DNA from: an uncultured Saccharospirillaceae bacterium
GTDB taxonomy: Bacteria > Bacteroidota > Bacteroidia > Flavobacteriales_D > CAJJDF01
DNA: 64,000 nucleotides
NCBI GenBank assembly: GCA_950054195.1
Contig: CATLPG010000003.1
Coordinates: 1 to 64,000, forward strand
Direction: 5' to 3'
Under the pieces are notes generated by a model. It was not told where the DNA came from. It worked only from the letters and a program-made list of their open reading frames with translations, and did not search any database. Positions 9,080 to 25,300 of this stretch are shown here, in pieces. Each line of letters opens with the position of its first letter. Within the stretch, counting starts at the first letter, position 1. The position numbers and the translations under genes were made by a program.

Positions 9080-9111
9080 TTGCCTAAACTAGTCGATAAG
9101 CCTACGTGAAC

Positions 9112-10452
9112 ATGAACAATTTTTATCATAGCTTTTTGAGAATCAGCAAGCTAGTAATGCTAGCAAGTTTTTTGTCAATCTCTGTACTTTTCGGACAAGA
9201 TGGATCAGCTTTATTTAAACAAAACTGCGCCTCTTGCCATCACCCAGTAAAAAATGGAACTGGTCCTGCATTAAAAGGGGCTAAAGCTAAGTGGGAAGCT
9301 GCTGGTGATAATATTTATGAATGGGTTAGAAACCCCCAAGCTCAGTATGAAGCGGGTGTTAAAAGCGCATTAGCTATTCAGTATAATGTTGGGGGAATGA
9401 ATGGTCAAGCAGTTTCTGATGAAGAAATTGATGCCATTTTCGAATATGTAGAGGCTTATAACCCTCCACCACCACCTGACGGAGGCGATACAGCTGGTGG
9501 TCCAGGAGCAGGGAGTGATAGAGAGTCAAGTTCTTGGTTTTGGTTTTTAGTAATCGGTCTTATTTTAATTTCAATTATTGTTTCTCTTTGGGGAGTTCGT
9601 AGACAATTAAAGTATGCTAACCAAGAGAAAGAAGGTGAAAAAGTAGAGGAGCAAGATTTAAAAGAAGAATTAGGTTCTTGGGCTTGGAGAAATTTAAAAC
9701 TTGTAAGCGTTTTAGGTTTTATAGCTACTTGTGCACTTGTGTACTGGTTGGCAGAAAGAGGTTACCAGGTAGGCGTGTTTGAGGATTATGTTCCAGACCA
9801 ACCAATAGCTTTCAATCACTCAATACATGCAGGTGATAATGAAATAGATTGTCAGTATTGTCATAACTCAGCTTCAAAAAGTAAGCATGCGGGTATTCCA
9901 ACTGTTAATGTGTGTATGAACTGTCATAAAGCAATCAAAGAGGGAAGAAGTGCTGCTGGTACTGCAGAGATAGCTAAAATCCATGAGGCTGCAGGTTTTA
10001 ATCCTGAAACAAATAAGTATACTGGTGAAACAGAGCCTATCAAATGGATTAAAGCACATAACTTACCAGATCACGTATATTTTAGCCATGCGCAACACGT
10101 TGAGGTAGGTAAAATAGAGTGTGAAAACTGCCATGGTCCTGTTAAAACATATACTGTTGGTAGAACAGCTAATTCAGAAATGATTAATGAAATGGCAATT
10201 ACTGGAGAAGGATTGAGAGATCCTCAAACGCAAAAATCAAAAATCATTCAATTAGAAAATCAAGTTTTAACAATGGGATGGTGTATCGAGTGCCATAACA
10301 AAGCAGAAGTTAAAATGGAAGGAAGTGAGTACTATGATGATATTCACGAAAGATTAAAAAGAGATAAGGAATTGTATAAAAGTGTAATGGAAGACGGAAA
10401 AGTAAACGTGAAAGAGTTTGGTGGATGGGAATGTGCTAAATGTCATTACTAA
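9112..10452 (+). CDS. actA: Alternative complex III multihaem cytochrome c subunit ActA
   Basis: ActA carries the c-type haems of alternative complex III, a quinol oxidoreductase that replaces cytochrome bc1 and hands electrons toward the oxidase. Six CXXCH motifs are visible: CASCH near residue 39 in a separate N-terminal monohaem domain behind a signal peptide, then, after two membrane helices (FWFLVIGLILISIIVSLWG and LVSVLGFIATCALVYWL), CQYCH, CMNCH, CENCH, CIECH and CAKCH. The last five form the classic pentahaem module; the first is an additional domain. A GTG six bases upstream (9106) is an alternative start. First gene of the operon. Confidence 0.93.
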   Translation: MNNFYHSFLRISKLVMLASFLSISVLFGQDGSALFKQNCASCHHPVKNGTGPALKGAKAKWEAAGDNIYEWVRNPQAQYEAGVKSALAIQYNVGGMNGQAVSDEEIDAIFEYVEAYNPPPPPDGGDTAGGPGAGSDRESSSWFWFLVIGLILISIIVSLWGVRRQLKYANQEKEGEKVEEQDLKEELGSWAWRNLKLVSVLGFIATCALVYWLAERGYQVGVFEDYVPDQPIAFNHSIHAGDNEIDCQYCHNSASKSKHAGIPTVNVCMNCHKAIKEGRSAAGTAEIAKIHEAAGFNPETNKYTGETEPIKWIKAHNLPDHVYFSHAQHVEVGKIECENCHGPVKTYTVGRTANSEMINEMAITGEGLRDPQTQKSKIIQLENQVLTMGWCIECHNKAEVKMEGSEYYDDIHERLKRDKELYKSVMEDGKVNVKEFGGWECAKCHY

Positions 10453-10477
10453 TAATTCTAAAATTGTATTTACATAT

Positions 10478-13400
10478 ATGAGTAAGGTAAAAACATATTG
10501 GAAAGGATTTGAAGAGAAAGAGCAAACTAGTGAGTTTCTAGAAGCAACTCAAAATGAGTTTACTCAAAATCTTCCAACTACAGACTTTTTAGGAAATAGT
10601 AAATTAGAAGAAACTTCTACACCAAGAAGGGACTTTCTAAAGTTTATGGGGTTCAGCGTTGCAGCAGCTACGCTAGCAGCTTGTGAAGCTCCTGTAATTA
10701 AATCTATTCCTTATGTAAACAAGCCAGAAGAAATAACTCCTGGTGTTGCTAATTGGTACGCATCTACATATTGGGATGGTAATGATTATGCTAGCATTTT
10801 AATTAAAACAAGAGAGGCAAGACCAATTTTCGTAAAGGGAAATAAGGATTTTGGTATAAATAATGGTGCTGTAACTCCAAGAATTACAGCTTCAGTACTT
10901 TCTTTATATAATGGCGCTAGACTTAAAAACCCAACAGTTAATGGAGAGTCATCTACATGGGCTAAAGTCGATAGCCAAATAGGTGAAAAGTTAAAAGATA
11001 TCAAAGCTAAAGGCGGTTCAATTAGAATATTAACCAACACCATAGCTAGCCCATCTACTAAAAAGGCATTAGGTGAGTTTGTTCAATCTTTAGGAGGAAC
11101 TATTTCCGAAGATGGTGAAGTTACTGGAGGTGCAAATGTAGAAGTAATAACGTATGACGCTATTTCTTATACTGGTTTATTAAAGGCTAATAAAGCATCT
11201 TTTGGAAGAGCATTGTTTCCAGATTACCATTTCAATAAAGCTAAAACTATCGTTTCTATCGGAGCAGACTTCCTAACTAACTGGGGGTTAAGCACAGATT
11301 ACGTTAGCGATTACGCAGAAAATAGAAGACCAGAAGGAGATTGGATGTCAAGACATTTCCAGTTTGAGTCTGTTGTAACAACTTCTGGAACTAGTGCGGA
11401 TGTTAGAATACCAATTAAACCATCTGAAGAAGGTTTAGTTGTAGCTGCATTATATAAATACATTGTTGGTCCAGTAGCAGTTGATGTTACTCCATCAATC
11501 ATGAGTAAAACTGAAAAAGTTGCTCAAGAATTAAAAGCTAGTAAAGGAAAAGCATTAGTTGTAGCAGGAAAAAACTGTGAAGGAACTCAATTACTAGTTA
11601 ATGAAATTAATAAAGCCTTAGGAGCTATAGGAAATACTGTAGATCCTTCTAATGGAGTATATGTTGCCGAAGGTGACGATACTGCTGTTGAGAAATTAGT
11701 TAATGAAGTAAACGGAGGTAAAGTTGATGCTTTATTACTTTATGGTGTAAATCCTGTTTATACATTACCTAATGGAAATGCTTTTGGTGATTCTCTTAAG
11801 AAAATCAACTTAACAGTATCTTTCTCACAGTTTGCAGATGAAACAGCTTCAAAATGCCAATTCGTTTGTCCTGACAATCATTTTATGGAGTCATGGAATG
11901 ACTATCAAATAAAAGATAATCACTATGCAATAGCTCAGCCAGTTATTCGTCCACTTTACGATACTGCTCAAGCTCAAGAAACATTTTTAGTGTGGGCTGG
12001 TAAAGCTAAGAGAGGCGGTAAAGATTCTACAGTTTATTATAACTACATAAAATCATCTTTTGCGGGTGATTGGAATTCATTAGTACACAATGGTTCAGTA
12101 AATGCTGCTCCGTTAATGCCATTTGTTAATGAAATCGAGACTCAAACTGATTTAGCGAAAGTTGCTAAGCATATCAACAGTCATGCTAGTGAAAAAGGAG
12201 AGTTTGAAGTAGTATTCTACCAAAAGAATGCTATTGGAGCAGGAGAGCAGGCTGCTAATCCATGGTTACAAGAATTACCAGATCCAATAACGAAAGTTAC
12301 TTGGGATAACTATATTACAATATCTAGAGCGGACGCTATAGAAAAAGGTTTAACTACTGATAACGGAGGAGGAATCATCTTAGGTGAAAAGTGGCCGGCT
12401 GATTTACGTACAATTAAAGTAAATGGTCAAGAACTAACACTTCCTTTATTTGTATTACCAGGTCAAGCAAAAGGTACTTTAGGAATTCCTTACGGTTATG
12501 GTAGGGGAGAAAACCAAGAAAATATTGGTGATGCTGCTTACCAAACAAAAGAGTACGGTAATTATGTGCTTGATGAAAATGGAAACAAAACTCCTATTGG
12601 AAAGAATGCATTTAAACTAACTACTTTTAAAAGTGGATTGGTATCTAATGCTGCACCAGCTAGTTTATCTGGTTCTGTAGGACAGTATCCATTAGCTTGT
12701 ACACAAACGCATCATACATTTATGGGTAGAACATCTATTGTTCGTGAAACCACATTCGATGTGTTTAAGCATTCTGGTAAAGAAGCCTATAACCCAGAAC
12801 ATACGTTAGTTGCTCATGAAAAAGGGAAAACAGTAAAGAAAAATATTCGTGAGTTTGATTTATGGGAAGATCACCCAGTAGAAAATGTTGGTCATAGATG
12901 GGGACTATCAATTGATCTTTCATCTTGTATCGGTTGTGGAAACTGTGTAGTAGCTTGTCATGCTGAAAATAACGTGCCAGTTGTTGGTAAGGATGAGATT
13001 AGAAGAGGAAGAGACATGCACTGGCTAAGAATTGACCGTTACTTCTCATCTGATGAGCAAGAAATCAGAGAGATTTCTATGGATCACCAAAGCGTTGGTT
13101 TTCAAAACGTGGAAAACGAAAAAGATATCGTTGTATTCGGTCTTAAAGAAGAAGAGAAAATTGCGGAATATAGATCAAACGATCAATATAAAGAAATTAC
13201 AGACTTTAGCTACTTAGAACTTGAAGTTCCTGAAGCACAACCTACTGTTGTTTACATGCCAGTTATGTGTCAACACTGTAATCACGCACCATGTGAAACT
13301 GTTTGTCCGGTTGTTGCAACTACACATAGTAATGAAGGGTTAAACCAAATGACTTATAACAGATGTATCGGTACAAGATATTGTGCAAACAACTGTCCTT

Positions 13401-13822
13401 ATAAAGTAAGAAGATTTAACTGGTTTAACTACCCAACAAACGATCGTTTCGTACACTTCAATCCATCACAAATGGATATGGGAAGAATGGTGTTAAATCC
13501 AGATGTTACAGTTAGAGCAAGAGGGGTAATGGAGAAATGTAGCATGTGTGTACAACAAATACAAGCAGGTAAGTTAGAAGCTAAAAAAGCAGGCAAACCA
13601 GTTCAAGATGGAGCTATACAAACAGCTTGTTCAACGTCTTGTCCAACAGAAGCTATTACTTTCGGTGATTTAAACGACTTTAAATCGCACGAAGGTAAAG
13701 GATCAAAAATCAGACAACAAGCTGACAACGATAGAGCTTACCATATTTTAGAAGAAGTAGGTACTCAACCGAATATTTATTACCAGGTGAAAGTATCAAA
13801 TAGAACAGAAGCAGAAGCTTAA
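10478..13822 (+). CDS. actB: Alternative complex III iron-sulfur subunit ActB
   Basis: ActB joins a molybdopterin-oxidoreductase-like domain that has lost its cofactor to a ferredoxin-like domain, on the periplasmic side of the complex. The ATG at 10478 gives 1114 residues and a 25-bp gap after actA; an earlier in-frame start would overlap actA. A twin-arginine motif (RRDFLKFMGF, near residue 50) precedes a lipobox-like Cys69. The large central domain follows, then the cluster-binding cysteines: CIGCGNCVVAC near 817, CQHCNHAPC near 931, CIGTRYCANNC near 963 and CSMC near 1021 with CSTSC near 1051, the pattern for three [4Fe-4S] and one [3Fe-4S] cluster. Confidence 0.95.
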   Translation: MSKVKTYWKGFEEKEQTSEFLEATQNEFTQNLPTTDFLGNSKLEETSTPRRDFLKFMGFSVAAATLAACEAPVIKSIPYVNKPEEITPGVANWYASTYWDGNDYASILIKTREARPIFVKGNKDFGINNGAVTPRITASVLSLYNGARLKNPTVNGESSTWAKVDSQIGEKLKDIKAKGGSIRILTNTIASPSTKKALGEFVQSLGGTISEDGEVTGGANVEVITYDAISYTGLLKANKASFGRALFPDYHFNKAKTIVSIGADFLTNWGLSTDYVSDYAENRRPEGDWMSRHFQFESVVTTSGTSADVRIPIKPSEEGLVVAALYKYIVGPVAVDVTPSIMSKTEKVAQELKASKGKALVVAGKNCEGTQLLVNEINKALGAIGNTVDPSNGVYVAEGDDTAVEKLVNEVNGGKVDALLLYGVNPVYTLPNGNAFGDSLKKINLTVSFSQFADETASKCQFVCPDNHFMESWNDYQIKDNHYAIAQPVIRPLYDTAQAQETFLVWAGKAKRGGKDSTVYYNYIKSSFAGDWNSLVHNGSVNAAPLMPFVNEIETQTDLAKVAKHINSHASEKGEFEVVFYQKNAIGAGEQAANPWLQELPDPITKVTWDNYITISRADAIEKGLTTDNGGGIILGEKWPADLRTIKVNGQELTLPLFVLPGQAKGTLGIPYGYGRGENQENIGDAAYQTKEYGNYVLDENGNKTPIGKNAFKLTTFKSGLVSNAAPASLSGSVGQYPLACTQTHHTFMGRTSIVRETTFDVFKHSGKEAYNPEHTLVAHEKGKTVKKNIREFDLWEDHPVENVGHRWGLSIDLSSCIGCGNCVVACHAENNVPVVGKDEIRRGRDMHWLRIDRYFSSDEQEIREISMDHQSVGFQNVENEKDIVVFGLKEEEKIAEYRSNDQYKEITDFSYLELEVPEAQPTVVYMPVMCQHCNHAPCETVCPVVATTHSNEGLNQMTYNRCIGTRYCANNCPYKVRRFNWFNYPTNDRFVHFNPSQMDMGRMVLNPDVTVRARGVMEKCSMCVQQIQAGKLEAKKAGKPVQDGAIQTACSTSCPTEAITFGDLNDFKSHEGKGSKIRQQADNDRAYHILEEVGTQPNIYYQVKVSNRTEAEA

Positions 13823-13853
13823 ATATATAGTTATAGTAATATAAAGCATAAGC

Positions 13854-15653
13854 ATGAGCGCAGTTAAAGAAGCAGACATTAGAGAACCCTTAATATTAGG
13901 TGATAAAACTTTTCATCAGATTACTGAAGATGTTTGTCAGCCTATTGAAAATCCTGCACCAAGAGGGTGGTATATCCTACTAGGGATAGCATCAATCATA
14001 GCTCTTTATGGTATTGGTTGTATTTTATACTTGTTAGCTGAAGGTATTGGAACTTGGGGGCTTAACAATAGTGTAGACTGGGCTTGGGATATTACCAACT
14101 TTGTATGGTGGGTAGGTATAGGTCACGCAGGAACACTTATATCAGCTGTACTTTTATTATTCCGTCAAAAATGGAGAATGGCGGTTAACCGTTCTGCAGA
14201 AGCAATGACAATTTTTGCCGTAATGATGGCAGCAGTTTTCCCTGGTATTCACATGGGACGTATTTGGGTTTCTTATTGGGTATTACCTTTACCAAACCAA
14301 TTTGGTTCTTTATGGGTAAACTTTAACTCTCCACTTCTTTGGGATGTATTTGCAATTTCAACATATTTCTCTGTATCACTTGTTTTCTGGTACATTGGTT
14401 TAATCCCAGATTTTGCTACAATTAGAGATAGACTAACTAAACCTCTTCCAAAAAAGATTTATGGTATCTTAAGCTTTGGATGGTCTGGTAGAGCTAAACA
14501 TTGGAACAGATTCGAAATTGTATCATTAGTATTAGCAGGTATTGCAACGCCACTTGTATTCTCTGTACACTCGATTGTATCGTTTGACTTTGCTACATCG
14601 GTTATTCCAGGATGGCATACAACAATTTTTCCTCCTTACTTCGTAGCAGGAGCGGTATTCTCTGGTTTTGCCATGGTACAAACACTTATGCTAATTGTGC
14701 GTAAGGTTATGAAACTAGAGGCTTACATTCACACAAAGCACGTGGAGTACATGAACATTGTAATCATGGTTACAGGATCATTAGTAGGTATTGCTTATAT
14801 CACTGAGCTTTTCATGGCTTGGTATTCAGGTGTAGAATATGAGCAGTATGCATTCATTAACAGAGCAACAGGGCCAATGGCTTGGGCATATTGGGTAATG
14901 ATGACTTGTAACGTAATTTCTCCACAGTTAATGTGGTGGAAAAGTTTAAGAAGAAACTTAATGTTCACTTTTATCATGTCTATCGTAGTAAACGTAGGGA
15001 TGTGGTTCGAGCGTTTCGTAATTATTGTTACTTCACTTTACAGAGGTCACATGCCATCTACTTGGGTGCACTTTTTCCCAACATGGGTTGATGTAGGTGT
15101 ATTTGTTGGTACAATGGGTATCTTCTCAGTATTATATTTATTATATGCTCGTTTCTTCCCAGTTTTAGCAATAAGTGAGGTTAAAACCATCCTTAAGTCT
15201 TCAGGAGAAAACTATAAAAATGATTTTGGAGCAGGTGAAGGTTATTACAACCAACAACACGATCACGAAGTTCATGATACAGATGTAGAGGTAGAATCTT
15301 TTGAAGAAGTTTCTGTTACAGAAACAAAAGAAGCTACTCATGTAGAAGTTACTGCCGAAAAAGAAGTAACTAATGAACTATCTGCTGAGGAGTTTGACGC
15401 TAAAAAAGAAGAGTTAATTCAAAAGCTTGGTGAAGCAAGTGCCGAAAATGCTGATGATCTTAAAAAGATTAGTGGTGTAGGTCCAGTTTTTGAACAAACA
15501 CTTAATAGCATTGGAATTTTTACTTTCGAACAAGTAAGTAAAATGACTAAAGAAGAATACGACTTGTTAGATTCGCTTACTAAAGCTTTCCCAGGAAGAG
15601 CTGAGAGAGACGATTGGGCTGGTCAGGCAAAAAAATTAATGGATAATAATTAA
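13854..15653 (+). CDS. actC: Alternative complex III membrane subunit ActC with C-terminal helix-hairpin-helix domain
   Basis: ActC is the NrfD/PsrC-like integral membrane subunit that binds menaquinol. The first about 470 residues show the usual helices and family stretches such as FVWWVGIGHAGTLISA, HMGRIWVSYW and VHSIVSFDFA. Unlike typical ActC it is 599 residues long: after an acidic linker comes a domain at about residues 535-599 containing LKKISGVGPVFEQTLNSIGI, FTFEQVSKM and FPGRAERDDWAGQAKKL. That sequence type is the helix-hairpin-helix tail better known at the ends of ribosomal protein L21 and NuoE in alphaproteobacteria. Its role on a respiratory subunit is unknown. It lies 31 bp after actB. 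Confidence 0.93.
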   Translation: MSAVKEADIREPLILGDKTFHQITEDVCQPIENPAPRGWYILLGIASIIALYGIGCILYLLAEGIGTWGLNNSVDWAWDITNFVWWVGIGHAGTLISAVLLLFRQKWRMAVNRSAEAMTIFAVMMAAVFPGIHMGRIWVSYWVLPLPNQFGSLWVNFNSPLLWDVFAISTYFSVSLVFWYIGLIPDFATIRDRLTKPLPKKIYGILSFGWSGRAKHWNRFEIVSLVLAGIATPLVFSVHSIVSFDFATSVIPGWHTTIFPPYFVAGAVFSGFAMVQTLMLIVRKVMKLEAYIHTKHVEYMNIVIMVTGSLVGIAYITELFMAWYSGVEYEQYAFINRATGPMAWAYWVMMTCNVISPQLMWWKSLRRNLMFTFIMSIVVNVGMWFERFVIIVTSLYRGHMPSTWVHFFPTWVDVGVFVGTMGIFSVLYLLYARFFPVLAISEVKTILKSSGENYKNDFGAGEGYYNQQHDHEVHDTDVEVESFEEVSVTETKEATHVEVTAEKEVTNELSAEEFDAKKEELIQKLGEASAENADDLKKISGVGPVFEQTLNSIGIFTFEQVSKMTKEEYDLLDSLTKAFPGRAERDDWAGQAKKLMDNN

Positions 15654-15663
15654 TAAAGTACAA

Positions 15664-16200
15664 ATGGCAGATACTATTTTATATGCAATGTACGATGACG
15701 ATGATAAAGTCCTAAGAGCAGCTAAGAAATTAGTTGGTAAAGGAGTTCACGTTAATGAGATTTTTTCACCAATGCCTATTCACGGTATTGATGATATTAT
15801 TGGTGTTCGTCATACACGTCTTGGTATTGCAGCATTTTTATATGGGTTAACAGGATTAATGCTTGCTACACTTGGAATGAAGTATTTCATGATCGATGAC
15901 TGGCCAATGAACATTGGTGGTAAGCCTAGCTTTTCTTACTTAGAAAACCTACCAGCGTTTATTCCAATTTCATTTGAGTTTACAGTTTTATGTGCAGCAC
16001 ACGGAATGTCTATTACTTATTTATTAAGAAACAAAACATTACCAGGTATGCCAGCTCAAAATCCAGATCCAAGAACAACAGACGATCGTTTTGTTATGGA
16101 ATTGAGAGTTTCTGAAAACAGCCAGTTTACAGCTCAAGAATTAACACAAATGATTCAAGAGACGGAGATTGTTGAATTAGACGAAAAACAAACCAAGTAA
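15664..16200 (+). CDS. actD: Alternative complex III membrane subunit ActD (DUF3341)
   Basis: The 178-residue protein matches the DUF3341/ActD family: a soluble N-terminal ferredoxin-fold-like part (MYDDDDKVLRAAKKL, EIFSPMPIHGID), two transmembrane helices (GIAAFLYGLTGLMLATLGM and FIPISFEFTVLCAAHGMSITY) and a cytoplasmic C-terminal tail with DDRFVMEL. In known complexes it packs against ActC and ActF without cofactors. It begins 10 bp after actC and ends 5 bp before actE, which fixes its place in the operon. Confidence 0.93.
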   Translation: MADTILYAMYDDDDKVLRAAKKLVGKGVHVNEIFSPMPIHGIDDIIGVRHTRLGIAAFLYGLTGLMLATLGMKYFMIDDWPMNIGGKPSFSYLENLPAFIPISFEFTVLCAAHGMSITYLLRNKTLPGMPAQNPDPRTTDDRFVMELRVSENSQFTAQELTQMIQETEIVELDEKQTK

Positions 16201-16205
16201 TTATT

Positions 16206-16913
16206 ATGAAAGGATTTATTAATAAAATAGTTGCAGGAAGTTTCTTGGTTTTAGCAGTTTCATCATGTGTTAAAGATGAGAATAGCCCAGGTTACGAATA
16301 CATGCCAGATATGTATCGTTCTCCAGCTATTGAAGCTTATGTTGATTATGGTGAGGTTAGAACTTGGATTCCAAATGATTCATTGAAAAACACACAAACA
16401 GCAAAGTTACCTCCATTCGGTACCATTCCTTACCAAGGAACTGAAGAAGTTTATTTACCATATAGTAGAAAGCCAGATCTTAAAATGGATGAAACGCATG
16501 GTATACGTAGTCTTGAATTTAGCTCAGCTACTCAAGAGGAATACAATGCCTCTGTAGCAGATGTTAGCCCTATTGCTTTTAATAATGAAAATGCTGAAAA
16601 GGGTCAAGTATTATATAATCGTTTTTGTGATCACTGCCATGGTGCAACAGGTCAAGGTGATGGTAAAGTATCGGTAGCATCTGATGGATTAATAGCACCA
16701 CCTAGTGATGCTTTTTCGAGACCAGAAGGACAAATGTTTTATGTAATAACTTATGGGAAAGGAGCTATGGGATCACATGCTTCTCAGTTGAATCAAAAAG
16801 AACGTTGGGAAGTAGTACAGTATTTAAAAGTTTTAAATATAGGTGAGTTCCCTCAAGAGCCAACAACTGATACAACAGAAAATACTGTTGATACCGTAGG
16901 AGTTAGTATTTAA
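16206..16913 (+). CDS. actE: Alternative complex III monohaem lipoprotein ActE
   Basis: ActE is the monohaem cytochrome c that can pass electrons from complex III to the oxidase. The 235-residue product has a lipoprotein leader with acylated Cys21, the ActE-type segment YMPDMYRSPAIEAY, a haem c motif FCDHCHGATGQGDG and a later GAMGSHA with a methionine likely to be the sixth haem ligand. The C-terminal 20 residues are acidic and threonine-rich. Spacing to actD is 5 bp. Anchoring by a lipid on the periplasmic face is inferred from the lipobox. Confidence 0.94.
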   Translation: MKGFINKIVAGSFLVLAVSSCVKDENSPGYEYMPDMYRSPAIEAYVDYGEVRTWIPNDSLKNTQTAKLPPFGTIPYQGTEEVYLPYSRKPDLKMDETHGIRSLEFSSATQEEYNASVADVSPIAFNNENAEKGQVLYNRFCDHCHGATGQGDGKVSVASDGLIAPPSDAFSRPEGQMFYVITYGKGAMGSHASQLNQKERWEVVQYLKVLNIGEFPQEPTTDTTENTVDTVGVSI

Positions 16914-16944: not shown

Positions 16945-18837
16945 ATGAATTTTCAATTTACAAGTAAACTAAAAATAACTGCCTTTGCCTTGATGGGAAT
17001 TGGAGTAGTTTTATTTGTGTTAGGTTTTTTTACTGAAAAGAGCCACGTATATGTAACACCATACACAAATGAAGGATTAGCTTTATTGCAAAAAAATAGT
17101 TTTGGAAAGCTGTCTCACGAAGAAAAAATCAGATTTGAAGAAATTGGAAATGGTTCTTCAATAGAAGATGCTTCTCTTTTGCTAGTAGAGTATTATCATG
17201 ATGATTTTCCTATGACTAAGGAAGCGTTTCAAGATGCCATCACTGCAAAAGCCAAGGAAGAAAACGTTATTGTTACATTTAGTGATTTTAAATCTCACGC
17301 TGTAGGTCATGCACATGGGCATGATGAAACTCATTCGCATAGCCATTCGCATGGATTAGCTGAGCACGACCATGAACATGCAACAAATGACGAAGAAAAT
17401 CATATGCATGATCATGAGGAAATGCTAAATGAAGCTCATGAGCATGGTCACGAGCATGAAGATGGAACAGAGCACGAACACATGCATGAAACTTCAGATG
17501 AAGAAAATCATGCACATGATCACCAAGAAGGAAATGCAGAAGAAGCAGAAAAGCACAGAGAAGCTCATCATGCAGACCATGGAATGGCATTTATCGCAAT
17601 GGCTACTGCAGGAGAAGAAAAACATCATGATGAAGCACATGGTGATGAACATGGTGGTCACCACGGAGGTCATGGAGAAGTTCATCATTCACCAATTGAA
17701 ACAGTAGAGCATATCATTCATGAGCAAGGAACTTTTAATGATAAGCATCATGGAAGAACTTGGTCGAATCTACTTGTTAATGCATTCTTTTTCTTTGGTA
17801 TTGGTTTAGGGGCTTTATTCTTTATTGGGTTACAGTATGCAACAGAATCAGGTTGGGGTGTTACAACTAAAAGAATTTTAGAAGCAATTACAGGATATTT
17901 ACCAATTGGTATGATTCCTTTATTAATTGTATTTATTGGAGCAAGTCTTCATTGGAACCACATTTATCACTGGATGGATCCTGAAGTTACTGACCCTAAC
18001 AGTCCTCATTACGATGGAATCATCGCTGGAAAGCAACCATTTTTAGGAAATACATTCTTTTGGATTATGAATGTGGTATACTTTGCTGTGTATTTATTCT
18101 TTGCAAGGTTCTTTAGAAAAAGATCATTAAGGGAGGATATCGAAGGAGGAACGAAACTTCACATGGGTAACTATGCTTGGGGAGCTGTTTTCTTAGTGTT
18201 CTTTGGTTATTTATCGTCAGTTATGTCTTGGCATTGGATTATGTCAATCGATACACACTGGTTTAGTACTTTATTCGGTTGGTATGTATTCTCAGGAATT
18301 TGGATTTCTGGAACAATAACAATCTTATTAATCATCTTCTACCTAAAGAGTAAAGGATATGCTGATTTTATAAATGAAAGTCATATTCACGATTACGGTA
18401 AATGGTTATTTGCAGGTAGTGTATTGTGGGCTTACTTATTCTTCTCACAGTTCATGTTGATTTGGTATGCTGATATACCTGAGGAAGTTACATACTACGT
18501 AGCTAGATTTACCGATTACAAGTATATTTTATGGACTACTTTTGCAATTAACTTAATCTTACCATTAGTAATGTTAATGTCAAGAGAAGCTAAAAGAAGT
18601 AAAACAACTATCGTAATAATAGGAACTATCTTATTAATTACACACTGGCTAGATGTTTTCATCATGGTGATGCCAGGAACAGTATTTGATCATTGGGATA
18701 TCGGAGCATTAGAGGTTGGTATGTTCCTTTTCTTTGCAGGAATGTTTATTTATGTGGTGTTCTCATCACTTGCAAAAGCACCGTTGTTAGTGAAAAATCA
18801 TCCTTATTTGGAAGAAAACTTACACCAACACACCTAA
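16945..18837 (+). CDS. actF: Alternative complex III membrane subunit ActF with histidine-rich insert
   Basis: ActF is an ActC paralogue-like integral membrane subunit. The 630-residue protein has one N-terminal helix (ITAFALMGIGVVLFVLGFF), an about 90-residue soluble part, and from about residue 280 the usual set of helices with motifs such as WNHIYHWMDP and MSWHWIMSIDTHWFSTLFGW. Between them, residues about 118-270, lies an insert with roughly 40 histidines plus many Glu and Asp, including two related copies of DEENHxHDH. Typical ActF proteins are shorter and lack this. The insert is expected to be unstructured without metal and could bind copper, zinc or nickel. The low-complexity codons create long meaningless frames on other strands. 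Confidence 0.92.
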   Translation: MNFQFTSKLKITAFALMGIGVVLFVLGFFTEKSHVYVTPYTNEGLALLQKNSFGKLSHEEKIRFEEIGNGSSIEDASLLLVEYYHDDFPMTKEAFQDAITAKAKEENVIVTFSDFKSHAVGHAHGHDETHSHSHSHGLAEHDHEHATNDEENHMHDHEEMLNEAHEHGHEHEDGTEHEHMHETSDEENHAHDHQEGNAEEAEKHREAHHADHGMAFIAMATAGEEKHHDEAHGDEHGGHHGGHGEVHHSPIETVEHIIHEQGTFNDKHHGRTWSNLLVNAFFFFGIGLGALFFIGLQYATESGWGVTTKRILEAITGYLPIGMIPLLIVFIGASLHWNHIYHWMDPEVTDPNSPHYDGIIAGKQPFLGNTFFWIMNVVYFAVYLFFARFFRKRSLREDIEGGTKLHMGNYAWGAVFLVFFGYLSSVMSWHWIMSIDTHWFSTLFGWYVFSGIWISGTITILLIIFYLKSKGYADFINESHIHDYGKWLFAGSVLWAYLFFSQFMLIWYADIPEEVTYYVARFTDYKYILWTTFAINLILPLVMLMSREAKRSKTTIVIIGTILLITHWLDVFIMVMPGTVFDHWDIGALEVGMFLFFAGMFIYVVFSSLAKAPLLVKNHPYLEENLHQHT

Positions 18838-18878: not shown

Positions 18879-20489
18879 ATGGAATTATTAGTTGTCATAC
18901 TTATCATCTTAGCTTTAGTTGCTCTAGCTCAAATCATGAAGGTATATGAGCTTTCGTCTAAACTGCGTAACAAAAGCGAAGCTGACGTCACTAAAGATGA
19001 GACAAACTTTAATGCATCAATGATGATTGTATTTATGGTTGTTTTTTTAGTAGGGAGTGTTTATTTAATTATCAAATATCCTTCAACCGTTGTAGGACCA
19101 GTAGCCTCATTACATGGTGCTGATATTGATTGGTTATATTGGATAAACTGGGTAATCCTTTTAGTTGTATTTTACATTACACAACCAATCCTATTTATTT
19201 TTGCCTACAAGTATAGAAAGCAAGAAGGTGTTAAGGCTACTTTCTTTGCACACTCTAATAAACTAGAGTTAATATGGACTGTAGTACCAGCGGTAGTTTT
19301 GGCTATAATCATTACACTAGGTATTTTTTACTGGAACAATATTACAAACGATAAAGATTTTTATGTGCAAGCAAAAAAATCACATATTATTGAAAATGGT
19401 AATGTATTAACAGAAAAAGAGTTTAAAGAAAAGGTTGATGAAGAATCTATGTACGAATACATTCGTTTATTAGGAGAAGAAAGCCACTACATCAAGTTTA
19501 ATGATTTTTTAAATTTTAGAAAATACTTTAATAGCGAAGACGAAGCAAAATCCTTTGTAGAAGCTAATGAAGAATACTCAAAAACAATTGATAGAACTGA
19601 GTATATTGAATTATACGCTTATCAATTTGGCTGGTTTGCAAGGTATGCAGGTAATGATTATACGTTAGGTAAATCAGATTTTAAAGTTTTAGATGAAGGA
19701 GCTAATCCACTCGCTGTTTTGACTAGTGATGTCATAAAAGAAAAGGAAGAAGCTTGGACTAAAGAAATTGAAGATTTAAAGAAAGAGATAGAGGGTAATG
19801 ATCTGATTTCTGATGCCAAGGTTGCATCAGTAGAATCTAAAATTGCTAGGTTAGAGAGACAATTAAAGAGGTTAGAGCCATTGGCTAAAGCTCAAACTGA
19901 GGAGGAGGATTTAGCTGCATTAAATGATATTATCGTTAAAGAACTTGTACTAATAAAAGGGCAAAACTATCAGTTTAAATTTAGAAGTAGAGATGTTATC
20001 CATAGTGCTTTCTTCCCACACTTTAGAGCACAAATGAACTGCGTTCCTGGTATGGTTACGAAATTTAATTTTACACCAACTGTTACTACTGATGAAGCAA
20101 GAAATAATCCAGAAATTATTGCTCATTACAAGGATGTAAATGATAGAAGAATAGCTAAAGGTGAAGAACCAATTGACTTTGATTTCCTTTTATTATGTAA
20201 TAAAATTTGTGGAGCTTCTCACTACAACATGCAAATTAAAATTACTGTTGTAGAAGATAAAGCTGCTTACCAAAGATGGTATAATGAGCAAATTGGAGGA
20301 AAATCATTTGCATCTGCAAGAGGTAAAAACGAATTAGAAATTGCAGAAATCTTCAACATGAGTTTAGAGGAGATTTATGGAGTAGATAAAGCCAAAGAAA
20401 TTAAAAAGAAATTTGGACTACTAGTTGAAGAGGATGCAACAGCTGAGGGTGTTGTAGGAGATACTACATTACAAGCAGCAAACGATTAA
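18879..20489 (+). CDS. coxB: Cytochrome c oxidase subunit II with extra helix and coiled-coil insert
   Basis: Subunit II takes electrons into the oxidase through the binuclear CuA site. The CuA ligands are present: HSAFFPHF and, near the C-terminal third, LCNKICGASHYNMQ, in which the second cysteine, histidine and methionine are kept and the common CxE is CNK, a form I recall from flavobacterial enzymes. Three membrane helices are seen, one more than the usual two. At 536 residues it is longer than usual: a charged segment before the LYAYQFGW strand and a coiled coil (about residues 285-345, KEIEDLKKEI, VESKIARLERQLKRLEP) are inserted within the cupredoxin domain. It lies 41 bp after actF. 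Confidence 0.93.
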   Translation: MELLVVILIILALVALAQIMKVYELSSKLRNKSEADVTKDETNFNASMMIVFMVVFLVGSVYLIIKYPSTVVGPVASLHGADIDWLYWINWVILLVVFYITQPILFIFAYKYRKQEGVKATFFAHSNKLELIWTVVPAVVLAIIITLGIFYWNNITNDKDFYVQAKKSHIIENGNVLTEKEFKEKVDEESMYEYIRLLGEESHYIKFNDFLNFRKYFNSEDEAKSFVEANEEYSKTIDRTEYIELYAYQFGWFARYAGNDYTLGKSDFKVLDEGANPLAVLTSDVIKEKEEAWTKEIEDLKKEIEGNDLISDAKVASVESKIARLERQLKRLEPLAKAQTEEEDLAALNDIIVKELVLIKGQNYQFKFRSRDVIHSAFFPHFRAQMNCVPGMVTKFNFTPTVTTDEARNNPEIIAHYKDVNDRRIAKGEEPIDFDFLLLCNKICGASHYNMQIKITVVEDKAAYQRWYNEQIGGKSFASARGKNELEIAEIFNMSLEEIYGVDKAKEIKKKFGLLVEEDATAEGVVGDTTLQAAND

Positions 20490-20522
20490 TTAATAAAACG
20501 TATTATAATACTATAAAACTCA

Positions 20523-22301
20523 ATGGGAGCACACAGTACACACGCACACGGACACCATCATCACGAAAGTTTTATAACCAAGTATATCTTTAGTCAAGAT
20601 CACAAAATGATCTCTAAGCAGTTCTTGATTACTGCTATGGTCATGGGTGTTTTTGCAGTAATTTTATCTGTATTATTTAGATTACAAATTGCTTGGCCAG
20701 AAGAATCTTTCGAATCAATGAAATTCTTTTTAGGTGAAGATTATGTTGATCAAAATGGATTATTAAAGCCAGATAGGTATTTAGCATTAGTAACAATTCA
20801 TGGTACTATCATGGTATTCTTTGTACTAACTGGAGGATTAAGTGGTACATTCTTTAACTTACTTATTCCACTTCAAGTTGGAGCAAGAGATATGGCATCT
20901 GGTTTCTTAAACATGTTGTCATATTGGTTATTTGCATTAGCTAGTGCAGTTATGTTATTTTCTTTATGGGTTGAATCAGGGCCAGCATCAGCAGGTTGGA
21001 CAATTTACCCTCCACTCTCTATCCTGGAGGAAGCAATTCCTGGATCTGGACTAGGTATGACACTTTGGTTAGTGAGTATGACTATGTTTATCGCTTCGTC
21101 TTTATTAGGTGGACTTAATTATGTTGTTACTATCATTAACTTGAGAACAGTAGGTATGAAAATGACACGTATGCCATTAACCATGTGGGCGTTTTTAACT
21201 ACTGCTATTCTTGGGGTACTTTCATTCCCCGTGTTAGTTTCTGCGGTAGCGCTTTTATTAATGGATAAATCATTTGGTACATCTTTCTACTTGTCAGATA
21301 TATTTGTAGGAGGAGAAGCTTTAGATGCTTCTGGAGGTAGCCCAATTTTATTCCAACACTTATTTTGGTTCTTAGGTCACCCAGAAGTATATATTGTACT
21401 ATTACCAGCTTTAGGTATCACATCTGAGATCGTAGCAACTAACTCAAGAAAGCCAATTTTTGGTTACAGAGCGATGATCGGTTCTATCTTAGCTATTGGT
21501 TTCTTATCATTCATCGTATGGGGTCACCATATGTTTGTAACTGGTATGAATCCATTTATAGGAGGTGTATTCGTATTTACAACATTGCTTATTGCGATTC
21601 CATCTGCGGTAAAGGCTTTTAACTACATCACAACGCTATGGAAAGGTAGTATACATTACACACCAGCAATGTTATTTTCCATTGGTTTAGTATCAACATT
21701 TATTACTGGAGGTTTAACAGGAATTATCCTAGCGGATGCAACATTAGATATTCCAGTACATGACACGTATTTTGTGGTTGCTCACTTCCATATTGTAATG
21801 GGGTTATCTGCCATCTATGGAATGTTTGCCGGAGTTTATCATTGGTTCCCTAAAATGTATGGACGAATGATGAATAAGAAATTAGGATACCTTCACTTTT
21901 GGTTAACTATGATTTGTGGATATGGGGTATTCTTCCCAATGCATTTTGTTGGTTTAGCAGGTTCTCCTAGAAGATATTATTCATACACTGAATTTCCATT
22001 TTTAGACCACGTTCAAGATTTAAATGAGGTTATTACATTCTTCGCAATTATTGGAGGTTTAGCTCAAATTGTTTTCTTCTATAATTATTTTTACAGTATT
22101 TGGAATGGACCAAAAGCGACTAAAAACCCATGGAGATCTAACACATTAGAGTGGACAACACCAGTAAACCCAGGACATGGTAACTGGGATGGACCTTTAC
22201 CAGTTGTTCACAGATGGGCATATGATTATTCAAACCCAGAGCATGAAGAAGATTTTGTGCCACAAACAGTTCCTTTAAAAGAAGGAGAACACGGTCACTA
22301 A
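20523..22301 (+). CDS. coxA: Cytochrome c oxidase subunit I
   Basis: Subunit I of a haem-copper oxidase, 592 residues with about 12 helices. Visible landmarks are GHPEVYI, which includes the D-channel glutamate of A1-type oxidases and the first CuB histidine and tyrosine, WGHHMFVTGM with two further CuB histidines, and HDTYFVVAHFHIVMG with both haem-binding histidines. The D-channel aspartate is in GARDMA. The N terminus is histidine-rich (HSTHAHGHHHH). The usual K-channel lysine appears to be histidine in GSIHYTPAMLF. It is the last gene of the operon and subunits III and IV are not next to it. Confidence 0.95.
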   Translation: MGAHSTHAHGHHHHESFITKYIFSQDHKMISKQFLITAMVMGVFAVILSVLFRLQIAWPEESFESMKFFLGEDYVDQNGLLKPDRYLALVTIHGTIMVFFVLTGGLSGTFFNLLIPLQVGARDMASGFLNMLSYWLFALASAVMLFSLWVESGPASAGWTIYPPLSILEEAIPGSGLGMTLWLVSMTMFIASSLLGGLNYVVTIINLRTVGMKMTRMPLTMWAFLTTAILGVLSFPVLVSAVALLLMDKSFGTSFYLSDIFVGGEALDASGGSPILFQHLFWFLGHPEVYIVLLPALGITSEIVATNSRKPIFGYRAMIGSILAIGFLSFIVWGHHMFVTGMNPFIGGVFVFTTLLIAIPSAVKAFNYITTLWKGSIHYTPAMLFSIGLVSTFITGGLTGIILADATLDIPVHDTYFVVAHFHIVMGLSAIYGMFAGVYHWFPKMYGRMMNKKLGYLHFWLTMICGYGVFFPMHFVGLAGSPRRYYSYTEFPFLDHVQDLNEVITFFAIIGGLAQIVFFYNYFYSIWNGPKATKNPWRSNTLEWTTPVNPGHGNWDGPLPVVHRWAYDYSNPEHEEDFVPQTVPLKEGEHGH

Positions 22302-22396: not shown

Positions 22397-25300
22397 ATGT
22401 TAAGATATTTATTAGTCCTTTTTATATCCTTATTAATTAGTTCAACTATTAATGCACAAAATTTTGTAGTAATTAATAGCCAAGTAGCTAACACGGTTAA
22501 CTTGTGTAACGAACAAAAAACGTTTCGCGTATCCATAGAAAACCCCTCTAGTTTTAATGCTAGTAATGTTTCCGTAACCATAACTTTGCCAACAGGAGTC
22601 AATTATGTGCCGTCATCTTTAACTGTTGGAACCGAACAAAATATTACTAATTTAGAGCAACCTGTTTTTTCTTTTCCCGATATAAATGTTTTAACCACAA
22701 CAACTTTTCAGTACGATGTCGAAGCCAATTGTGATGCAATAGCCTTTTTAAGTGGTGGTGGAATTCCATCTAATGCAGTATCGGTTAATTACACAGCGAA
22801 TGGGAATAACATCACACAAAATCATACAACGAGTGACTATAATGTTAGTGTTCCTAACTTATCTGTTTCTTCGTTTACAAATCAAGTAGAGCCTTCAGGA
22901 AGTATTGGGTCTAGTTATAATAGATGTATTACCATAACAAATGGAGGAGTAGGTTATTTATCTTCTTTTACTTTAGAAAATACACATGGTGATGGAATTC
23001 AAATTGATAATATTAGTGCAGGAACAAGAAGCACAGTAGGGCTGGTGGATACGTATGTTTTAGATGGTACTGATTTTACATCTATAGGAGATGGTGATGC
23101 ATTTTTCGAAACAGGAGAATCAATTACAATTTGCGAGGATTACACGGTTTTAAACTGTGTTAACGTACTTTCTGAATACGAAGCATTTTGGGGGTGTAAC
23201 GGAGCTAACTGTCAAGTAGTAACAACTACATCAAACGTGCTATTTGGAAACACTAGTCCTTTAATTGAAGGAGTAAGTGTTATTAGTGATAATAGTACTT
23301 GTCATGGAAGCGGAGTTACAAGAACAGAAGGGTTTGTTGTTACAAATAATGGTAATGGTTTAGCTATAAATTCTGAGTTTAATATTTTTCAAAGTTGGAC
23401 TAGTTCCGGCTTTAGAAGTACCTGGTACAGTTCTATTGACACTTCTTCAGTAATGGTTACAGTTAATGGAGGAACTCCTTTTCATGTAGCTCCTTTTCAA
23501 GTTACAAATAACACCATTCCTCACGCAGGTGATATGTCTAGTTGCCCGCCTGACAATATTGGAGAGTTTTGGGTGAGGTTAGATACGATAGAACCAACTG
23601 ATACGGTTGAAATTACATGGCAAGTAACAGAATGTGATCCCGTTGGTTGTTATTCTTCTCGAAGACATACACTTGGATGGTTTTACGAAGTAGCTTACGA
23701 AAATATTTGTCAAAATGATTTCTTGATGGAGCCTATTAGAGGAAGAGTGTACGATTACTTCAGAGAAACATTAGCATCTAACCTCGCTCCAGCAAATATA
23801 ATAAGTGGTGAAACACTTAATTTTAATTACTTAATAGCTGTACAAGAAAAAGCAGTAAGAAGAGATGTTAATAATGATCAATACGTATATAAATTGGTCT
23901 TACCTGCATGTTTATCATATACTGGAGGTTCATTAACTGTTTTAAATGAGGATAATAGTGTTTTGGCTAATGAAATAAGTAGTTATGTGAATGGCGACAC
24001 AACATTTATAACTGTAGAGTATGGGGGGGCAGGAAACTTTGTAAATGGTCAGTTAACTTTTGATTTAACAGCAGATTGTTCTGGTTGTGGAAACGTTTCT
24101 GGAGCATATCCAATCGAAATTTATTCTACTTACAATTCTGATACTACATGTCCAAGTAATATAGATATACAATTAGCATGTTTTACCACACAAGTATACG
24201 TGTTGTGTCCATCTAGTTGTGATGGTTACAATTTTACATCCTTTGATGTTGCAAGAACCAATTTAGGTCAGTCAGATAATGATAACGATGGTCTTCCAGA
24301 TACGCCTAATGCATTAGATATGTCGTTAATTCGTGATGATCGTGCGATGTTCGCTGATACAATCGAAATGGTTTATGGAGGAGAAATTACGGTCAATGGA
24401 GGAACTCCTAATTTTGATTATTTTACTATTAATAGTGAAATCGATTACGGTATTTATTTAACTTATTTAGACGGAGAGATAAGATTTTTTGATCAATCAA
24501 CAGGAGTAACACATGTTGCTACTGGAATTCTACCTCAATCAGATAATGTTACTGGTCATATTCGAGAAATTGTTTTTGAGGAACAAATATCTACGCTTGC
24601 CTTTACCCCAGCTTTACCTGGAGGCTTTACAATTGAAAACACAGACTCATTATGGTTTGATGCTAACTACAGAGTATCATCTAACCCAACAAGCAACATA
24701 GGAGGATCTGGTGCTAATACAGGAAATAACATTCTAGAAAGTAAAATTTCATCGGTAACTTATTTGTCTGATGTGCCAAATGCAGCACCTGCAGATCAAT
24801 ACGGATGTAATGATTTAGAAGGTTACATTTCTTTAATTGGTTATTATCATACAAATTCTGGAGCAATTGACATAAATCATGATAATTGTGACACTGTTGA
24901 ATTAACTCGATTGACTTACTATTCAGTTGGACCATGTTGTAGTAACTATGCAGGGGGTAACTTATTTCCTTTTGAATATCGTAATTGGGTAATTGATGAT
25001 TCCTTAATCATAGATTTACCTGGAGAGTACGAAATAGCAGATGTTACTTATCAACTTTATAGATCTACTGGTTATGGTATAACAGCTGAACCCTTAATAC
25101 CAATATCTCCAATCGGAGGAAGTACAACAGGAGACCGTTTTACTTTTGATATAGCACAGTATTATAATAATGGAACACTAGTGCCTAGTGATGAAGGTCA
25201 CTACTCATATACTCGACTCAAATTAGTACCAACATGTAATACACCAAAAGCTGTACAACAACGAGCTAATTTTTACTTCAAGAGATTAGAGTCTTATTTA

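What the first reader, a model, noticed from the sequence alone, without database searches (positions are those of the whole stretch)
17299..17750. Histidine-rich insert of about 150 residues in ActF
About 40 histidines mixed with Glu and Asp lie in the soluble loop between the first helix and the rest of ActF, with internal duplication of a DEENHxHDH unit. The next gene products need CuA and CuB, and CoxA also starts with a histidine-rich tail. A metal store or copper-delivery loop physically tied to the supercomplex is an appealing hypothesis.
Basis: partly seen in the sequence, partly recalled or inferred. Interest (0 to 1): 0.6.

Follow-up and report, generated by a model that had tools for sequence, protein, structure and literature searches.

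The report
Histidine-rich periplasmic arms on ActF
A protein of this bacterium's respiratory chain carries two long, floppy, histidine-packed arms on the outer side of the inner membrane; related bacteria keep histidines at the same place, and the arms probably bind protons or metal ions, which is untested.

Summary
ActF (window 16945-18837) has 40 His and 40 Asp+Glu in residues 119-269, far above chance. It is not one insert. Two His arms flank a short hydrophobic strand. In sister families they are loops of a small ββαβ-[arm 1]-β-[arm 2]-α domain between TMH1 and TMH2. Published topology puts this loop in the periplasm.

The feature is the extreme of a class-wide trait. His stays at 12-17% of this loop from 7 to 245 residues. 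115 of 166 class Bacteroidia ActF loops have at least 2 His, against 0 of 20 from other classes of the phylum. Families with His-free loops carry a His arm in another periplasmic loop. His is kept better than codon-matched Asp and Asn. The CoxA His tail is also class-wide (113 of 117 versus 1 of 16) but lies on the cytoplasmic side.

Copper delivery is possible: the side is right, and Cox11 and PCuAC were not found in 20 of 20 relatives. It is not specifically supported. I slightly prefer proton buffering; metal reservoir is the close rival. Neither was tested biochemically.

The parts
16945..18837 (+). actF, 630 aa, second NrfD-like subunit of alternative complex III; ten hydrophobic segments
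   Evidence: Best solved match 6btm_F (F. johnsoniae ACIII subunit F), E 4.1e-108 over residues 201-629; Foldseek 6btm_F E 7.4e-23; ten hydropathy peaks.
16975..17031 (+). TMH1 (residues 11-29), cytoplasm to periplasm
   Evidence: Hydropathy peak 2.5; helix 7-30 in the AlphaFold2 model.
17038..17289 (+). Non-His-rich start of the periplasmic insert (residues 32-115); aligns with strands 1-2, helix 1 and strand 3 of the mini-domain of the sister family
   Evidence: Alignment of 34 loops; fold predicted on relative L050, pLDDT blocks 76-90. In the window protein itself this stretch is predicted at only pLDDT 46-63, without strands.
17293..17580 (+). His arm 1 (residues 117-212), about 28 His, low confidence and probably disordered
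   Evidence: Counts; pLDDT under 50 at residues 113-252.
17389..17415 (+). First copy of the duplicated unit DEENHMHDH
17497..17523 (+). Second copy of the duplicated unit DEENHAHDH, 36 residues later
17581..17613 (+). Hydrophobic strand between the arms (GMAFIAMATAG), the counterpart of strand 4
   Evidence: Counterpart 'HHGPTFxWxVHI' of the f3 family; strand 71-79 of the L050 model. The counterpart in this protein is assigned by position and by eye.
17614..17688 (+). His arm 2 (residues 224-248)
17689..17766 (+). Conserved approach helix to TMH2 (SPIETVEHIIHEQG...RTWS)
   Evidence: Alignment; helix 250-299 runs into TMH2.
20523..20573 (+). CoxA N-terminal His tail (8 His in 17 residues), cytoplasmic side; related trait, not physically part of the arm
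   Evidence: charge bias of the 12-helix topology.
9106..16913 (+). actA-actE, upstream genes of the same run
   Evidence: ORFs; ActD Pfam PF11821 E 3.4e-51; ActC NrfD PF03916 E 1.1e-18. The names ActA, ActB and ActE rest on gene order and on hits to related QrcA/QrcB/QrcC and cytochrome families.
18879..22301 (+). coxB and coxA, subunits II and I of the aa3-type oxidase
   Evidence: Pfam COX2_TM E 1.9e-07, COX2 E 0.0011 (under its cut-off), COX1 E 4.3e-137.

Best explanation
SHOWN BY SEQUENCE: ActF of this lineage carries, in the periplasmic loop between TMH1 and TMH2, two flexible His- and acid-rich arms. In the sister family these are the strand 3-4 and strand 4-helix 2 loops of a small inserted domain. 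They are the most enlarged form of a His-enriched periplasmic element found through class Bacteroidia. His content, not length, order or exact place, is what is kept. INFERRED: the arms act as a tethered bank of ionisable groups with pKa near neutral on the proton-release side of the ACIII-aa3 supercomplex. They would take up and hand on protons released by quinol oxidation and pumping, a periplasmic proton antenna or buffer. The arms will also bind Zn2+, Cu2+ or Ni2+ to some extent, as any such sequence does.
For: Side: R. marinus ActF termini are cytoplasmic with 10 TMHs; N-side loops hold 9-34% K+R and P-side loops 0-8.5% over 154 ActF. His% is 12.1, 13.2, 12.1, 16.5 and 13.6 in five length bins of 149 distinct loops, 7 to 245 aa. 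In 7 close pairs His was kept at 112 and changed at 14 positions; Asp+Asn, same codon type, kept 105 and changed 38; Fisher P 0.0018. Convergence: six loci of family f16 (L128, L233-L237) and L134 have His-free TM1-2 loops and an 11-12-His arm in the TM3-4 loop, also periplasmic. Rare elsewhere in what was sampled: ActF and CoxA are first and joint second of 364 ORFs for His density. The N-terminal part of F0 subunit a, a proton channel without copper, is His-richer in the class (9.8%, 17 loci) than outside (5.5%, 9 loci; Mann-Whitney P 7e-5 on the densest 30 residues). No Cys in the window loop; HH and HxH pairs are depleted across 34 representative loops, which suits well-spaced titratable groups more than chelate motifs.
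Against: No pKa, proton-flux or metal measurement exists. The window's own arms, unlike the pooled set, have an excess of HxH and HxxxH (z 2.6 and 3.4), a pattern of metal-binding tracts. In family f3 some His sit at fixed places beside strand 4 (28, 27 and 25 of 29), which suggests a defined site rather than a mere buffer. 14 of 166 class loops have no His and the short ones have 1-4, too few for much buffering. Proton release to the periplasm is not known to be rate-limiting. The F0 comparison is small and the enrichment mild. The cytoplasmic ActF C-terminus is equally His-rich (13.7%).
Confidence: 0.38

Rival explanations
1. Metal reservoir or copper hand-over: the arms bind Cu (or Zn) in the periplasm and raise its local concentration for loading CuA and CuB of the attached oxidase.
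For: Right side of the membrane. Cox11, PCuAC and Caa3_CtaG not found in 20 of 20 relatives while Sco1 is in 20 of 20, so CuB insertion lacks its usual agent; Cox11's soluble domain faces the periplasm (PMC6696091, passages). HxH and HxxxH excess in the window arms. Fixed His beside strand 4 in f3. Genes lie next to coxB-coxA.
Against: No Cys in the window loop and little Met, whereas known periplasmic copper carriers use Cys or Met+His (PMC6696091 passages). Relatives with 7-20-aa loops lack Cox11 as well, so the arm does not substitute for it in a size-dependent way. Caa3_CtaG is missing equally outside the class, where loops are not His-rich (1 of 36 genomes). In R. marinus the oxidase sits next to ActC, and ActF is peripheral (PMC5928083 passages).
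Confidence: 0.32
2. Electrostatic or mechanical element: acidic, flexible arms that help dock the mobile cytochrome domain of ActA, a soluble cytochrome c, or the oxidase; His is kept for pH- or metal-dependent stickiness.
For: Asp+Glu are 20% of the long loops. In F. johnsoniae the chain is 464 residues but the structure library holds 402, consistent with an unresolved loop of about this size.
Against: Does not explain why His is better kept than Asp in close pairs or why short loops keep His.
Confidence: 0.15
3. No specific function: a tolerated low-complexity expansion of CAT/GAA codons.
For: Arms evolve fastest (pooled pN/pS 0.36, against 0.24 scaffold and 0.11 core), vary in length, and hold a recent-looking 36-residue duplication.
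Against: His retention above codon-matched Asp/Asn, constant His share over a 30-fold length range, recurrence on at least 7 changes of the tree, and relocation to another periplasmic loop.
Confidence: 0.1

Closest known systems
ActF of Flavobacterium johnsoniae ACIII (PDB 6btm chain F)
   Same: Same subunit, 44% identity in the Foldseek alignment; also a His-rich TM1-TM2 loop, about 13 His by my count from the printed alignment.
   Different: Shorter loop without the inserted mini-domain; 402 of 464 residues are in the structure library, so the loop is probably not modelled (inference).
ActF of Rhodothermus marinus ACIII (PDB 6f0k chain F)
   Same: Same fold, 10 TMHs, termini in the cytoplasm (PMC5928083 passages).
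   Different: 417-residue chain, so no large insert. Its loop sequence was not seen; the 20 other-class loci read here have 6-11-aa loops with 0-1 His.
His-rich loops of zinc and copper proteins (ZnuA, CDF/ZIP transporters; recalled, no call)
   Same: Flexible His/Asp/Glu-rich loop on a membrane or periplasmic protein.
   Different: ActF is a respiratory-complex subunit with no known metal or transport role; metal binding untested.
Proton-collecting antennae of His/Asp/Glu on proton-moving membrane proteins (idea recalled; search listing only)
   Same: Clusters of titratable residues at the mouth of a proton path.
   Different: Those are surface patches of a few residues; here up to 44 His on mobile arms.
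Cox11/CtaG and PCuAC copper inserters
   Same: Periplasmic and act on the same oxidase type.
   Different: No Cys-x-Cys or Met/His cupredoxin site and no sequence match; neither family found in 20 relatives.

Membership tests
ActF of alternative complex III | Sequence match to solved ActF chains | tested here: met
   6btm_F E 4e-108, 6f0k_F 4e-47, 8k9e_F 4e-37, 6lod_F 2e-29.
ActF of alternative complex III | Ten transmembrane helices, N- and C-termini in the cytoplasm | tested here: met
   Ten hydropathy peaks and K+R bias of loops; model helices; orientation from papers.
ActF of alternative complex III | Encoded in an actABCDEF cluster | tested here: met
   Order of ORFs, ActD PF11821, NrfD ActC.
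ActF of alternative complex III | No quinol site | not tested
   Reported for R. marinus (PMC5928083); residues not checked here.
Periplasmic copper chaperone (Cox11, PCuAC, Sco) | Family sequence match or Cys/Met copper site | tested here: not met
   No such Pfam hit in ActF or its loop; no Cys in the loop.
His-rich metal-binding loop (works like) | Dense His tract, flexible, on the metal-exposed side | tested here: met
   side.
His-rich metal-binding loop (works like) | Measured metal binding in the physiological range | not testable with these tools
   Needs protein.
Ferredoxin-like/ACT/S6-like fold (mini-domain) | Significant structural match to a solved member | tested here: inconclusive
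   Foldseek: 0 of 932 matches at E<=0.001; VIA Z at most 5.5 to ribosomal S6, ACT-like and others.

The most novel reading that the evidence does not exclude
Class Bacteroidia equipped its respiratory chain with His-rich proton-handling arms: on the periplasmic side of both the proton source (ActF of the ACIII-aa3 supercomplex) and the proton sink (subunit a of ATP synthase), and on the cytoplasmic uptake side of CoxA. Tethered buffers would then speed local proton hand-over along the membrane. ActF of this lineage is its most extreme form.
Probability: 0.15. Interest if true: 0.78.

Novelty: new variant of a known kind. Interest (0 to 1): 0.5.

Why it matters
ActF is the one NrfD-like subunit without a quinol site, and whether and how ACIII moves protons is open. 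A kept, class-restricted ionisable arm on the proton-release side of that subunit gives a direct handle: it can be deleted in a genetically tractable species. If instead it stores copper, it could fill a gap, since the usual CuB inserter Cox11 was not found in the 20 relatives searched.

Tried and rejected
Rejected: a single 150-residue insert (it is two arms around a strand). Rejected: the CoxA tail as support for periplasmic copper delivery (wrong side). Rejected: general His-richness of the proteome (1.64% His; 8 of 364 sampled ORFs have 6 or more His in 30 aa).

Led nowhere: Pfam on the loop (only sub-threshold Strabismus and PAS_13); NCBIfam on ActF (none). Foldseek and VIA on the mini-domain gave no significant match, which does not show a new fold. 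The AlphaFold2 model of window ActF did not fold the mini-domain (pLDDT 46-63, helices only); the model with strands is of relative L050 with 4 sequences. A test whether CoxA keeps its His tail without ACIII failed: of 25 genomes without an ActF hit, 9 gave a clear CoxA match (E 4e-21 or better), 6 of the 9 beginning within 1,200 bases of a contig start, so a missing actF there may be a contig break. Paper searches for His-rich + ACIII, His-rich loop + oxidase + Bacteroidetes, His-rich + aa3 + Flavobacterium gave 0 papers; 'histidine-rich' with proton, buffer, ATP synthase and Bacteroidetes gave 2 off-topic ones (listing only). The F. johnsoniae ACIII structure paper (Sun et al. 2018) is not held, so I cannot say whether it mentions the loop.

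Rows dropped and biases: L124, L130 and L001 dropped from the counts (false upstream extension, or no ActF); L012 and L061 cut at the N-terminus. In one search, 4 of 30 AtpB loci (L256, L267, L274, L281) were not counted. The class sample is not random: Flavobacteriales, long-ORF cases and close relatives are over-represented. The pairs share members, and MAFFT favours aligning His with His.

Full report
WHAT IS THERE. actF lies at 16945-18837 (+), 630 aa, in a run actA-B-C-D-E-F-coxB-coxA. It is ActF: 6btm_F, the F. johnsoniae ACIII subunit, matches residues 201-629 at E 4.1e-108. ActD is PF11821 and ActC is NrfD. The genome is a Flavobacteriales-like one: the nearest named loci are Flavobacteriales MAGs at 58% identity in the core; the window's own record is not named.

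OBSERVATION. Residues 119-269 hold 40 His and 40 Asp+Glu in 151. Base shuffles give 4.1 His on average, 12 at most of 2000. The whole TM1-TM2 loop has 245 residues and 44 His, no Cys, 6 Met. The DEENHxHDH duplication is real, 36 residues apart. In 464 kb of this genome (window plus 20 stretches), of 364 ORFs ActF is first for His in 30 residues (11) and CoxA is joint second (8) with one unidentified ORF.

ANATOMY. An alignment of 34 long loops from families f1 (own) and f3 shows the shared plan. Part 1: about 45-85 residues, not His-rich. Part 2: His arm 1, very variable. Part 3: a short conserved hydrophobic strand (f3: HHGPTFxWxVHI; here GMAFIAMATAG). Part 4: His arm 2. Part 5: a conserved helix running into TMH2. 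AlphaFold2 on the short-armed relative L050 (116 aa, 4 sequences) gives strand-strand-helix-strand-[arm 1]-strand-[arm 2]-helix, mean pLDDT 74, scaffold blocks mostly 83-91, arms 54-58. The same method on the window ActF left residues 113-252 under 50 and did not fold part 1. So for the window protein the mini-domain rests on alignment to f3 and is an inference. No solved structure matches it clearly.

SIDE OF THE MEMBRANE. R. [quoted passage not shown] passages seen), so the TM1-TM2 and TM3-TM4 loops are periplasmic. The K+R content of loops over 154 ActF agrees. The CoxA N-terminus is by charge bias on the cytoplasmic side: even segments 21 K+R, odd 7. The two His-rich elements are on opposite sides.

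RELATIVES. ActF was found in 59 of 60 relatives, 142 of 150 genomes of the order, 181 of 198 of the class and 84 of 118 of the phylum. Loops were read from loci. In 149 distinct loops the His share is 12.1% (up to 12 aa), 13.2% (13-22), 12.1% (23-60), 16.5% (61-110) and 13.6% (over 110); 13 of 149 have no His. On a FastTree tree of 186 cores, loops over 60 aa need at least 7 changes; the f1+f3 clade of 33 has support 80. Outside the class, 20 loci have loops of 6-11 aa; 7 of 20 have one His and 0 of 20 have two, against 152 of 166 with one or more and 115 of 166 with two or more in the class. CoxA tails with 3 or more His: 113 of 117 in the class, 1 of 16 outside. The class sample leans to Flavobacteriales and to cases picked for long ORFs, so these are not frequencies of the class.

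A RELOCATED ARM. L128 and five more loci of family f16 (L233-L237), and L134, have His-free TM1-TM2 ends but an insertion-bearing TM3-TM4 stretch of 106-109 residues with 11-12 His, also periplasmic. The f16 and L134 inserts look alike, so this may be one event.

SELECTION. In 7 close pairs, over whole loops without His-based masking, His was kept at 112 and changed at 14 positions; Asp plus Asn kept 105, changed 38; P 0.0018, or 0.0043 away from gaps. Pooled pN/pS is 0.36 in arms, 0.24 in scaffold, 0.11 in core over 25 overlapping pairs, some saturated. In f3, 11 loop columns are His in at least 60% of 29 rows; the three best, beside strand 4, in 28, 27 and 25.

COPPER CONTEXT. Sco1 was found in 20 of 20 relatives; Cox11, PCuAC and Caa3_CtaG each in 0 of 20, with some control genomes positive each time. 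Cox11 normally makes CuB and faces the periplasm (PMC5829832 and PMC6696091 passages). That leaves CuB insertion unassigned here. But short-loop relatives lack Cox11 as well, and Caa3_CtaG is nearly absent on both sides of the class boundary (1 of 36 genomes).

HIS SPACING. In 34 representative loops HH and HxH are fewer than in shuffles (z -4.8 and -5.7) and HxxH more frequent (z 3.4). In the window alone HxH and HxxxH are in excess (z 2.6 and 3.4).

ANOTHER PROTON MACHINE. The N-terminal part of F0 subunit a before its first conserved helix (exported by the look of it) has 9.8% His in 17 class loci and 5.5% in 9 others; densest 30 residues, median 5 versus 4, P 7e-5. One locus (L272) has an ActF-like arm. 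The difference is small in most rows.

JUDGEMENT. Real, kept for its His, class-wide, extreme here. Proton buffering or antenna (0.38) and metal reservoir (0.32) are close; the data favour the first mainly through the F0 and CoxA parallels, the missing Cys and the spread-out His. Nothing here is biochemical.

Noticed in passing
20523-20573 and CoxA starts in loci L004-L215: CoxA begins with a His-rich tail ahead of the conserved KYIFSxDHK in 113 of 117 class loci and 1 of 16 others, on the cytoplasmic side; function unknown.
   Followed up: partly
L128, L233-L237, L134: His-rich insertion moved to the TM3-TM4 periplasmic loop of ActF (stretch of 106-109 residues) while the TM1-TM2 loop has no His.
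   Followed up: yes
L253-L282 (AtpB); own copy L277: The N-terminal part of ATP synthase subunit a is His-richer in class Bacteroidia than in other classes of the phylum; L272 has a dense His arm.
   Followed up: partly
13854-15653: ActC carries a C-terminal extension whose residues 487-597 match the tail of NADH dehydrogenase NuoE, L21 and PhaH models (E 8.7e-23), a helix-hairpin-helix-like module after the last membrane helix.
   Followed up: no
18879-20489: CoxB has a long coiled-coil-like stretch (by eye) inside or before its CuA domain; Pfam COX2 matches only residues 354-399, below its cut-off.
   Followed up: no
22397-30358: Directly downstream of coxA lies a 2653-aa repeat protein that ends like a type IX secretion cargo (by eye), not an oxidase assembly gene.
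   Followed up: no
own genome and 19 relatives: Cox11, PCuAC and Caa3_CtaG each found in 0 of 20, Sco1 in 20 of 20: how CuB is loaded in this group is open.
   Followed up: partly
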